NCBI GenBank assembly: GCA_021296135.1
Contig: JAGWAZ010000008.1
Span: 1-61,102 of the forward strand
Direction: 5' to 3'
Length of the DNA: 61,102 nt
Source: Chlorobiota bacterium
GTDB lineage: Bacteria > Bacteroidota > Ignavibacteria > OLB7
The notes beneath the pieces were generated by a model. That model was not told the origin of the DNA and made no database searches. It was given only the letters and a program-made list of their open reading frames with translations. The position numbers and the translations under genes are program-made. This document shows positions 48,288-61,102 of this stretch, piece after piece. Numbering within the stretch: position 1 is the first letter of the stretch; each line of letters opens with the position of its first letter.

Positions 48288-49214
48288 ATGAAGGAACCGA
48301 TACAGGACAACCGAAAGGAACAGCCCATTGGACGTCACCTTCGAGCCAGAAGGTGGATGTATGATCTCATACAATCTCCGGAAGTCGACTCGAAGCGTGG
48401 AAAATTTGTTCGCACATTCATTGCGGTCATCATCGTCAGCAACGTTATCGTTGTGATGCTTGAGACTATAGGTGAGGTGAACCAACGGTTCCATGAACTT
48501 TTCTTCTGGATTGAAGTCTTCTCCGTTGCCATCTTCACGCTTGAATATATTCTTCGCCTCTGGGTCGTTGTGGAAGATCCGCGATATTCGCGCCCATTCA
48601 CGGGACGTTTGCGCTATTCAGTCTCCTTTTTTGCCTTGATAGATTTAATGGCAATTATCCCCTTCTATCTTCCCATGTTTTTCAAGGTCGATATGCGAGC
48701 GCTCCGTATCCTGCGATTGTTGCGTCTGGTACGAGTATTGAAGTTAGGACGATACTCTCGTGCTGCCCGCATCTTTGTCGGCGTACTTCGAAACCAGCGA
48801 GAGCAACTCGTCATATCATTGCTTGCCATGTTGCTTCTTCTGATTGCTTCCTCTGCAATGATCTATTACCTTGAACATGATGCTCAGCCGGAGGCTTTCC
48901 CAAGCATACCAGCATCACTCTGGTGGGGTATCGTCACATTGACAACCATCGGATATGGCGATGTCTATCCTGTGACTGTAAGTGGGAAGATCTGCGCAGC
49001 GATAATCTCGGTTCTGAGCATTGGCATGGTGGCGCTCCCGTCTGGAATTATCGTCTCAGGCTTTATTGATGAATTGGATGAACAGCGTGGACAGAATAGA
49101 AAGGAGGATACAACATCTGAAGGGATGTTTTGTCCGAACTGTGGCAACCCGTTAAGAATCAACGTACAACTACATAATGGGACTACACATGATGAAGAGC
49201 AAAACGAGGATTGA
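48288..49214 (+). CDS. Voltage-gated potassium channel protein
   Basis: 308 aa six-helix ion channel. S1 about 40-60, S2 about 71-91, S3 about 112-130, S4 with repeated Arg/Lys (RALRILRLLRLVRVLKLGRYSRAARIF, about 137-163), S5 about 173-195, pore helix and selectivity filter TLTTIGYGD (filter TIGYGD 220-225), S6 about 232-260. The TVGYGD-type filter indicates K+ selectivity and the charged S4 voltage gating. The C-terminus carries CPNCG (282-286), half of a zinc ribbon; the second CxxC is absent. The next gene overlaps its end by 26 bp. Confidence 0.92.
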   Translation: MKEPIQDNRKEQPIGRHLRARRWMYDLIQSPEVDSKRGKFVRTFIAVIIVSNVIVVMLETIGEVNQRFHELFFWIEVFSVAIFTLEYILRLWVVVEDPRYSRPFTGRLRYSVSFFALIDLMAIIPFYLPMFFKVDMRALRILRLLRLVRVLKLGRYSRAARIFVGVLRNQREQLVISLLAMLLLLIASSAMIYYLEHDAQPEAFPSIPASLWWGIVTLTTIGYGDVYPVTVSGKICAAIISVLSIGMVALPSGIIVSGFIDELDEQRGQNRKEDTTSEGMFCPNCGNPLRINVQLHNGTTHDEEQNED

Positions 49215-49896
49215 TTTGCTGGAAGGACGCCTTGCTCAGCTTGAACGAAAAGAACGGACCTGGCGTCGTGCTTTCTTTGGAACAGCTGCCGTGTTTGCCG
49301 CTTTGGTTCTGATTGCGGCCGGACCGGGAGAGGTACCAGAGCTGATTCAGGCACAAGAATTTCAGGTGGTTGATAATGATGGCAAGGCCTTGATTCAGCT
49401 GACGAGCAATCCTCTTGGTGGAATGGTGATGGTGATGAACCAGGAAGGGCAGCCGGTTGTTCTTGCCGGGGCCTCTGGTCTTGGAGGTGTAATGGGGATC
49501 AGCAACACGGATGGTAATCCCATTGCACTGTTGGAAGCTACCGGTTCAGGAGGAGCCGTTACGGCAAAGAGCAATGGGGGAGTCAATCTCGCACAAATTG
49601 GTTCACGTCCGGAGGGTGGAGCTGTTGTTGTAAACAGCAGCTCCGGCCTCAACAATATCATCATACAGACACAGGAGAACGGGGGACAGATTGATATAAA
49701 CGGTTCTTCCGGGCGTCCCCTTCTCTCCTCTTTAGCGGCTGATGATGGTGGAGCGATGGTTGTACTTGATACTGCCGGAGTTGCTCGCATGACAGTTGTT
49801 AGTGGTGAGTTAGGTGGTGTGGCAACGCTCTACAACACATCAGGCAACATGATCTGGCAAGCGCCAAGCCCGGGGTTTTTCGGAGGAGACAAGTAG
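49189..49896 (+). CDS. Membrane-anchored 22-residue-repeat solenoid protein
   Basis: About 235 aa from ATG 49189 (49192 also possible), overlapping the channel gene by 26 bp in another frame. A charged coiled-coil-like N-terminus (RIDLLEGRLAQLERKERTWRR) leads into one membrane helix (about 29-45), then eight consecutive repeats of exactly 22 residues (DNA 49357-49875; the last is 19 residues). Each repeat has Gly at position 9 and, in the seven full ones, Gly-Gly at 21-22, with alternating hydrophobic residues at 2 and 4 and around 12-15. This is the pattern of a beta-solenoid. No known family is recognised. The overlap suggests co-translation with the channel. Confidence 0.85.
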   Translation: MMKSKTRIDLLEGRLAQLERKERTWRRAFFGTAAVFAALVLIAAGPGEVPELIQAQEFQVVDNDGKALIQLTSNPLGGMVMVMNQEGQPVVLAGASGLGGVMGISNTDGNPIALLEATGSGGAVTAKSNGGVNLAQIGSRPEGGAVVVNSSSGLNNIIIQTQENGGQIDINGSSGRPLLSSLAADDGGAMVVLDTAGVARMTVVSGELGGVATLYNTSGNMIWQAPSPGFFGGDK

Positions 49897-49979: not shown

Positions 49980-51263
49980 ATGTCTTTATTCGATTTGTTG
50001 GCCGGGTTGATTGGTATCTCGGCGATCTTCAGCTACATCAACTACCGGTTTCTGAAGCTGCCGATGGCTATCGGCCTGATGGTGATCGGCCTCCTTTTTT
50101 CGCTCGTGATTGTAGTGATGGGATTGTACGATCCCGCAATACACGATCAAGCTCAAGCGATTCTTCTACAGGTCGACTTCGATGAGGCACTGATGCAGGG
50201 AATGCTCGGCTTCCTTCTCTTTGCCGGCGCACTTCACGTTGACATTAATGATTTGCGAGAGCAGCGCGGGTTGATTCTGACTCTTGCAGTTCTTGGCACA
50301 CTTCTGACAACCATTCTTGTTGGTGGAGTTCTCTATCTTGTTCTTCCTTTGCTCGGGGTCGAACTCAGTCTCTGGTACTGCCTTCTCTTTGGCTCGTTGA
50401 TTGCACCAACCGACCCGATTGCTGTCCTTAGCATCCTGAAAAAACTTGGTGTACCAAAGTCATTGGAAGTCCAGATTACGGGCGAGTCTCTCTTCAATGA
50501 TGGTGTGGGAGTGGTGGTCTTCCTTGCCATTCTCTCTCTGGCAGGTATTGGTGGCGGACATGCCGATATCTCCGGAGGGGCAATTGCCTGGCTTTTTGTG
50601 CAGGAGGCGCTCGGTGGTGCGCTCTTCGGCTTGGCTATTGGTTTGCTCGGTTACTGGACTCTCAAGAGTATCGACAGCTATCAAGTAGAGATACTCATTT
50701 CACTCGCCTTGGTCTTTACCGGCTATGCTATTGCACTCTGGCTCCATATCTCAGGCCCGATTGCCATGGTTATCGCCGGTTTGCTTCTCGGCAATCATGG
50801 AAGAGCCTTTGCTATGTCGCGTACAACACGGGAACATCTCGACATGTTCTGGGAGTTGGTCGATGAGTTTCTGAACGCGATCCTCTTCGTGCTCATAGGT
50901 CTGGAGATGTTGATCCTTTCATTTCTCGGAGAATATCTTTTTGCCGGAGCTATAGTTATCGTCATCGTTCTGCTTGCCCGACTCGGCACAGTAGCCTTAC
51001 CGATCAATTTCCTTAGGTGGCGTGGTAAAGGAGAAAACCTTCCACGATACACATCACGCCTGATGACCTGGGGAGGACTTCGTGGTGGCATCAGTGTTGC
51101 GCTTGCCCTCTCAATTCCGGCAACGCTCAGCGGAGAGCCCGTTGCCGAACGTGAAGTGGTTGTCTCACTGACCTACATCGTCGTTGTCTTTTCAATCGTT
51201 GTGCAGGGCCTGACAATAGGGCCGCTGTTGAGGAGGTGGGAGATAGTCTCACCAAATTCGTGA
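49980..51263 (+). CDS. Na+/H+ antiporter, NhaP/CPA1 family
   Basis: 427 aa with about 12 membrane helices. Conserved CPA1 blocks: FLLFAGALHVDINDLREQRGLIL, FGSLIAPTDPIAVLSILKKLGVP (TDP), ITGESLFNDGVGVVVFLAIL (ESLFNDG, ion-binding ND), and TWGGLRGGISVALALSIP. These identify a NhaP-type Na+(K+)/H+ exchanger of the inner membrane. GAGGAG lies about 4-9 nt upstream of the ATG. It stands 83 bp after the solenoid gene, in line with a K+/Na+ homeostasis group including the K+ channel. Confidence 0.92.
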   Translation: MSLFDLLAGLIGISAIFSYINYRFLKLPMAIGLMVIGLLFSLVIVVMGLYDPAIHDQAQAILLQVDFDEALMQGMLGFLLFAGALHVDINDLREQRGLILTLAVLGTLLTTILVGGVLYLVLPLLGVELSLWYCLLFGSLIAPTDPIAVLSILKKLGVPKSLEVQITGESLFNDGVGVVVFLAILSLAGIGGGHADISGGAIAWLFVQEALGGALFGLAIGLLGYWTLKSIDSYQVEILISLALVFTGYAIALWLHISGPIAMVIAGLLLGNHGRAFAMSRTTREHLDMFWELVDEFLNAILFVLIGLEMLILSFLGEYLFAGAIVIVIVLLARLGTVALPINFLRWRGKGENLPRYTSRLMTWGGLRGGISVALALSIPATLSGEPVAEREVVVSLTYIVVVFSIVVQGLTIGPLLRRWEIVSPNS

Positions 51264-53412: not shown

Positions 53413-53422
53413 ATGGAGAGGG

Positions 53423-53478
53423 GAGACAAGGAGACAAGGAGACAAGGAGACAAGGAGACAAGGAGACAAGGAGACAAG
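53423..53478. repeat. Seven tandem copies of an 8-bp unit
   Basis: GAGACAAG is repeated seven times without interruption, starting 10 bp after the stop of the OmpA gene and lying before the RidA-family gene. The unit length is not a multiple of three and the tract is noncoding. Such perfect short repeats are prone to slippage. Confidence 0.95.
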
Positions 53479-53495
53479 GGGGGAGAGGTGCATAA

Positions 53496-60855: not shown

Positions 60856-61102
60856 TAGCCCAGCGGTTTACGGCTGGGAAGATGTGATCGGATCGACCCT
60901 CGGGGCTACCCATAACCCGGCGTTTTACGAATAGCCCAGTCGTTTACGGCTGGGATGATGAGAGCAAAGCTAGCCCAGTCGTTTACGGCCGGGAAGATGT
61001 GATCGGATCGACCCTCGGGGCTACCCATAGCCCGGCGTTTTACGAATAGCCCAGTCGTTTACGGCTGGGATGATGAGAGCAAAGCTAGCCCGGCGTTTTA
61101 CG
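60856..61102. repeat. 115-bp tandem repeat array of hairpin-forming units, running off the window
   Basis: Two full units (60856-60970 and 60971-61085, four differences in 115 bp) and the start of a third (61086-61102). Each unit holds two TAGCCCAG...GTTTACGG...CTGGGA hairpins (for example 60856 and 60931; 60971 and 61046) and a half-hairpin reading CCCGGCGTTTTACG. The region 60708-60855 before it contains no gene. Confidence 0.9.

What the first reader, a model, noticed from the sequence alone, without database searches (positions are those of the whole stretch)
49357..49875. Eight perfect 22-residue repeats in a membrane-anchored protein overlapping a K+ channel gene
Residues after the single membrane helix divide without gaps into seven 22-residue units plus one of 19. 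Gly at position 9 is invariant and Gly-Gly closes each full unit. DNA identity among the units is low, so the period is held by selection at the protein level. The pattern implies a regular beta-solenoid outside the membrane, translated next to a voltage-gated channel. I recognise no named repeat family.
Basis: seen in the sequence. Interest (0 to 1): 0.6.

Follow-up and report, generated by a model that had tools for sequence, protein, structure and literature searches.

The report
Membrane-anchored tandem beta-hairpin repeat protein
The gene encodes a membrane-anchored protein of eight 22-residue beta-hairpin units, a member of a scattered, uncurated bacterial family of 'hypothetical proteins'; its place beside a potassium-channel gene appears to be particular to this genome.

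Summary
The repeat is real. After one transmembrane helix, the ORF at 49177-49896 divides without gaps into 22-residue units. The lag-22 score is 9.5 sd above shuffles, Gly9 is invariant, GG closes the units, and DNA identity between units is only 39%. 'Perfect' is true of the spacing only; protein identity between units averages 23%. The interpretation mostly fails. AlphaFold models give two strands per unit (tandem beta-hairpins), and Foldseek matches single-layer hairpin sheets (engineered OspA, MORN-repeat, Rhs/teneurin), so a solenoid is not supported. The protein is not a one-off: full-length relatives (20-32% identity) with the same plan (short basic coiled-coil-like segment, one TM helix, 'IQAKxFQVVDxxGxxLV', 21-28-residue repeats) occur in Bacteroidota, and looser ones in Nitrospirota, Planctomycetes and Armatimonadetes. 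No Pfam, NCBIfam or PHROG family covers them. In 30 relative loci (191 kb) no channel or NhaP homologue was found. Three sister genomes keep the channel but lack the repeat protein. Best reading: an inner-membrane-anchored, extracytoplasmic hairpin sheet acting as a binding or spacer scaffold, placed by chance in an overlapping ion-transport gene cluster. Function is inferred, not shown.

The parts
48288..49214 (+). 6-TM voltage-gated-type K+ channel (Ion_trans) with a C-terminal CPNCG zinc-ribbon-like half; upstream neighbour
   Evidence: Pfam PF00520 E=2.3e-33
49177..49896 (+). Repeat protein ORF (239 aa from ATG 49177); the real start is probably ATG 49189 or 49192, overlapping the channel stop by 23-26 nt
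   Evidence: translation, start and GGGA check, alignment to relatives
49179..49182 (+). GGGA, Shine-Dalgarno-like, 6 nt before ATG 49189 and 9 nt before ATG 49192
   Evidence: sequence
49192..49269 (+). N-terminal basic, coiled-coil-like segment (LLEGRLAQLERKERTWRR), predicted cytoplasmic
   Evidence: K+R 9, D+E 4; conserved LExRxxKLE in relatives; helix in AF2
49270..49326 (+). Single transmembrane helix (residues 32-50)
   Evidence: best hydropathy window, mean KD 2.02
49357..49422 (+). Repeat unit 1, EFQVVDNDGKALIQLTSNPLGG; the family's most conserved unit (QAKxFQVVDxxGxxLV)
49423..49818 (+). Repeat units 2-7, six units of 22 residues
49819..49893 (+). Repeat unit 8 plus tail, VATLYNTSGNMIWQAPSPGFFGGDK; the [WF]x[AS]P C-terminal motif is shared with same-class relatives
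49980..51263 (+). CPA1/NhaP-type Na+/H+ exchanger; downstream neighbour
   Evidence: Pfam PF00999 E=3e-65

Best explanation
The ORF encodes a signal-anchored inner-membrane protein. A short basic helical N-terminus lies in the cytoplasm, one helix crosses the membrane, and about 180 residues outside form eight tandem amphipathic beta-hairpins. Each 22-residue unit is strand, NxxG turn, strand, GG turn, and the hairpins line up side by side into one long up-and-down beta-sheet of the MORN/OspA-single-layer type. It belongs to a sparse but widely spread, uncurated bacterial family with the same plan. The most likely action is passive: an extracytoplasmic sheet whose regular face binds a partner (another copy, an envelope protein or a glycan) or holds it at a fixed distance from the membrane. 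It sits in an overlapping gene pair with a K+ channel in this lineage only. Shown: the repeat, the family and its plan, and variable neighbours. Predicted: fold and topology. Inferred: function.
For: Period 22, z = 9.5. Relatives share the plan: L024 (32% identity over residues 13-231, E 4e-20), L031-L035, named Chitinophagaceae, Hydrotalea, Sphingobacteriales, Planctomycetaceae and Armatimonadetes records, same-class members, and a looser Nitrospirota plasmid protein, P0002. A profile built without the window gives it 92 bits, 44.6 for the repeat region alone; the best of 492 scored glycine-fixed shuffles gives 13.6. Family-wide units show alternating hydrophobic positions around an N/D-x-x-G turn. 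AF2 with 13 sequences: two strands per unit. Foldseek: engineered OspA single-layer sheets E 2.8e-5, Rhs/teneurin weaker; MORN-repeat models. MORN units are 23-residue beta-hairpins (PMC7725318).
Against: AF2 support is moderate: mean pLDDT 75 (repeat blocks mostly 61-88), pTM 0.47, shallow alignments. TM-scores to matches are only 0.4-0.5. AF2 is known to mispredict repeat proteins (PMC11795689). Coordinates were not inspected. Hydrophobic residues in a single-layer sheet suggest that it pairs, rolls up or oligomerises, which a monomer prediction cannot show. No experimental data were found on any member.
Confidence: 0.6

Rival explanations
1. Beta-solenoid (monomeric, or a trimeric beta-helix on the N-terminal coiled coil): each 22-residue unit is one turn of a coil.
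For: About 20 residues per unit, invariant glycines at turns and a hydrophobic periodicity are also typical of solenoid coils. The N-terminal coiled-coil-like segment could trimerise (inference).
Against: Both AF2 runs give hairpin-type strand pairs and Foldseek hits are dominated by hairpin sheets, not solenoids, although AF2's reported bias is towards solenoids. Unit spacing varies 21-28 in relatives, loose for stacked coils.
Confidence: 0.2
2. The sheet rolls up into a closed barrel or shell, like a small YD/Rhs shell, enclosing or capping something.
For: Foldseek also returns Rhs effectors and teneurins, whose shells are single up-and-down beta-sheets (PMC5851990). The units are amphipathic.
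Against: No Pfam RHS_repeat hit. Eight hairpins are few, there is no Rhs core or toxin domain, and TM-scores are about 0.2.
Confidence: 0.12
3. Accessory subunit of the neighbouring K+ channel (or NhaP), translationally coupled to it.
For: 23-26 nt overlap with the channel gene, same strand, antiporter 83 nt downstream.
Against: Sister-genome channel orthologues (about 52% identity) have no detectable repeat protein in the genome; in G002 a different membrane gene follows. No channel or NhaP homologue in 191 kb around 30 relative loci. Neighbours there are unrelated genes.
Confidence: 0.1

Closest known systems
Uncurated 'hypothetical protein' family with 22/23-residue D-x-x-G repeats behind one TM helix (e.g. 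WDT82930.1, Candidatus Manganitrophus plasmid; Chitinophagaceae and Armatimonadetes records)
   Same: TM helix, pre-repeat IxAxxFxxxDxxGxxxxxL, tandem repeats; basic LExRxxxLE N-terminus in the closer members; [WF]x[AS]P end in same-class members
   Different: Window units are unusually regular (all 22 residues with GG); most relatives drift between 21 and 28
MORN repeats (23-residue beta-hairpins)
   Same: Unit length, hairpin per unit, glycine-rich turns, extended single-layer sheet in the predicted model
   Different: No GxG...YEGEW motif, no Pfam match; membrane-anchored with repeats outside
OspA single-layer beta-sheet and its engineered repeat versions (PSAMs)
   Same: Best Foldseek matches; one such entry also matched by sequence profile (3eex, E 8.7e-6)
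   Different: OspA's sheet is capped by globular domains (PMC3776556 on PSAMs); about 10% identity, so analogy rather than ancestry
YD/Rhs repeats (Rhs effectors, teneurins)
   Same: Up-and-down hairpin repeats with 'YDxxG'-like turns (turn motif from general knowledge)
   Different: No Rhs core or toxin domain, far fewer units, no Pfam RHS_repeat match
CPAP TCP domain (G-box)
   Same: Free-standing extended beta-sheet that binds a partner peptide (PMC3776556)
   Different: Eukaryotic and centriolar; no Pfam match

Membership tests
Uncurated bacterial CC-TM-repeat family found here | Basic LExRxxKLE N-terminus, one TM helix, QAKxFQVVDxxGxxLV, tandem 21-28-residue repeats | tested here: met
   Alignment A8; leave-out profile 92 bits
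MORN repeat | Pfam MORN profile / GxG and YEGEW motifs | tested here: not met
   No Pfam hit at E<=1 for the window protein; MORN not among hits at E<=0.1 for 13 members; motif absent from units
MORN repeat | About 23-residue unit folding as beta-hairpin | tested here: met
   22-residue units, two strands each in AF2, a prediction; Foldseek to viral MORN models
YD/Rhs repeat | RHS_repeat profile and Rhs core domain | tested here: not met
   No Pfam hit; protein is only 239 aa
Beta-solenoid | Successive units stacked as coils | tested here: inconclusive
   Two AF2 models give hairpins; oligomer not modelled
K+ channel auxiliary subunit | Conserved gene neighbourhood with the channel | tested here: not met
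K+ channel auxiliary subunit | Physical interaction with, or effect on, the channel | not testable with these tools
   needs co-purification or electrophysiology

The most novel reading that the evidence does not exclude
A distinct, uncurated class of extracytoplasmic single-layer beta-hairpin repeat, spread thinly over several bacterial phyla, that acts as a membrane-tethered binding rod and in this lineage has been recruited as a translationally coupled regulator of a K+ channel/antiporter module.
Probability: 0.07. Interest if true: 0.65.

Novelty: new variant of a known kind. Interest (0 to 1): 0.3.

Why it matters
The family appears in several phyla (Bacteroidota, Nitrospirota, Planctomycetes, Armatimonadetes) but no family library searched here covers it, so members are annotated 'hypothetical'. 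Defining it would name a set of orphans and give another natural example of a free-standing single-layer beta-sheet. The supposed ion-channel link, which would have been the exciting part, is not supported.

Tried and rejected
Single-protein pattern scan of genome contigs found nothing, as did tblastn of plasmids and phages with the window protein. Unit-pair alignments shifted register in MAFFT. In the unit alignment A2 one F of the last unit was left out to keep 22 columns. The 22-mer profile gave only chance hits outside the window in 40 relatives (the G003 hit is on the opposite strand of a long gene). A consensus of a related repeat recalled from memory was used as a probe only; the hits, not the memory, are the evidence. 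The 3eex OspA sequence-profile hit is treated as shared hairpin composition, not homology. The 753-aa hit in L055 looks like a tail-fibre/adhesin-type protein and is not counted as a relative. Viral contigs gave no relative. Consensus promoter and terminator scans around the cluster were at or below chance level and say nothing on operon structure. Paper searches found no description of this repeat family.

Full report
Observation. The ORF at 49177-49896 reads through without a stop and contains one hydrophobic stretch (residues 32-50), followed by units of exactly 22 residues from residue 61. The autocorrelation at lag 22 lies 9.5 standard deviations above shuffles, with a harmonic at 44. Gly9 is invariant, and GG ends each unit (the last reads FFGG). 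'Perfect' applies to spacing only. The overlap with the channel gene is real. GGGA at 49179-49182 favours a start at 49189 or 49192, an overlap of 23-26 nt.

Known families. Pfam, NCBIfam and PHROGs have no credible match for the window protein, nor Pfam or NCBIfam a consistent one for 13 relatives scanned one by one. Sequence search of the PDB with the protein alone found nothing credible.

Relatives. The nearest genomes lack it: none in 98 other relatives at E 0.01. Searching around it gave five more. A named-genome scan gave Sphingobacteriales, Hydrotalea and Chitinophagales members, plus looser ones in Planctomycetaceae and Armatimonadetes. A 13-member profile then found several in the window's own class (9 of 294 genomes including its own), most with the same plan and often a [WF]x[AS]P end like the window's WQAP. 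A recalled consensus of a 23-residue repeat, used as a probe, hit hypothetical proteins on Candidatus Manganitrophus plasmids; the window protein aligns with one of them across the pre-repeat segment and unit 1 (E 2e-5 for the single comparison). A profile made without the window scores it at 92 bits, and the repeat part alone at 44.6, against at most 13.6 for 492 scored shuffles that keep every glycine in place. Membership therefore does not rest on glycine spacing.

Neighbours. Relatives sit beside Gfo/Idh and cobalamin adenosyltransferase, glutaredoxin and PriA, ROK and NUDIX, acetyltransferases, EVE and Sir2 genes. No homologue of the window's channel or antiporter lies in 191 kb around 30 relative loci; flanks were short (about 1.5 kb) for some of them, and a few loci are two copies of the same record. 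The channel's orthologues in three sister genomes lie in genomes with no detectable repeat protein, and in G002 a MgtC-like membrane protein follows the channel (assigned by eye). The ion-transport neighbourhood thus looks particular to this lineage.

Structure. AlphaFold2 with 6 and with 13 family sequences gives two strands per 22-residue unit, with mean pLDDT 68 and 75 and pTM 0.47. Foldseek returns engineered OspA single-layer sheets first, then Rhs and teneurin shells, and viral MORN-repeat models. MORN repeats are 23-residue beta-hairpins (PMC7725318); the CPAP TCP domain shows that such an open sheet can stand alone and bind a partner (PMC3776556). Across the family the units keep alternating hydrophobic positions around an N/D-x-x-G turn. 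I read this as a tandem beta-hairpin sheet rather than a solenoid, with moderate confidence. AF2 is unreliable on repeats (PMC11795689), although its reported bias is towards solenoids, not away from them.

Function. By the positive-inside rule (nine K/R before the helix, acidic after) the repeats face outside the inner membrane. Lacking recognisable enzyme domains and a conserved neighbour, the protein is best explained as a membrane-tethered binding or spacer sheet. That step is inference.

Noticed in passing
window 49129-49160: The K+ channel ends in a CPNCG zinc-ribbon-like half site; a sister channel ends similarly (QCPHCGRLVE in L021).
   Followed up: partly
window 60856-61102: 115-bp tandem repeat (2.1 copies, 93% match) containing AGCCCAGCCGTTTACGGC-type palindromes at the contig end.
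   Followed up: no
window 53422-53479: Perfect 8-bp tandem repeat (GGAGACAA, 7.2 copies) just after the OmpA-like gene; possible phase-variable or merely intergenic repeat.
   Followed up: no
L014 3863-4657: A repeat protein of the looser family lies directly downstream of a CusA/CzcA RND efflux gene on Candidatus Manganitrophus plasmids; on the GAC2 plasmid (L016) the same place is annotated as two short ORFs.
   Followed up: partly
L051 and L058 (G639 contig 31): A short version of the repeat protein occurs twice about 44 kb apart in one genome, with identical scores.
   Followed up: no
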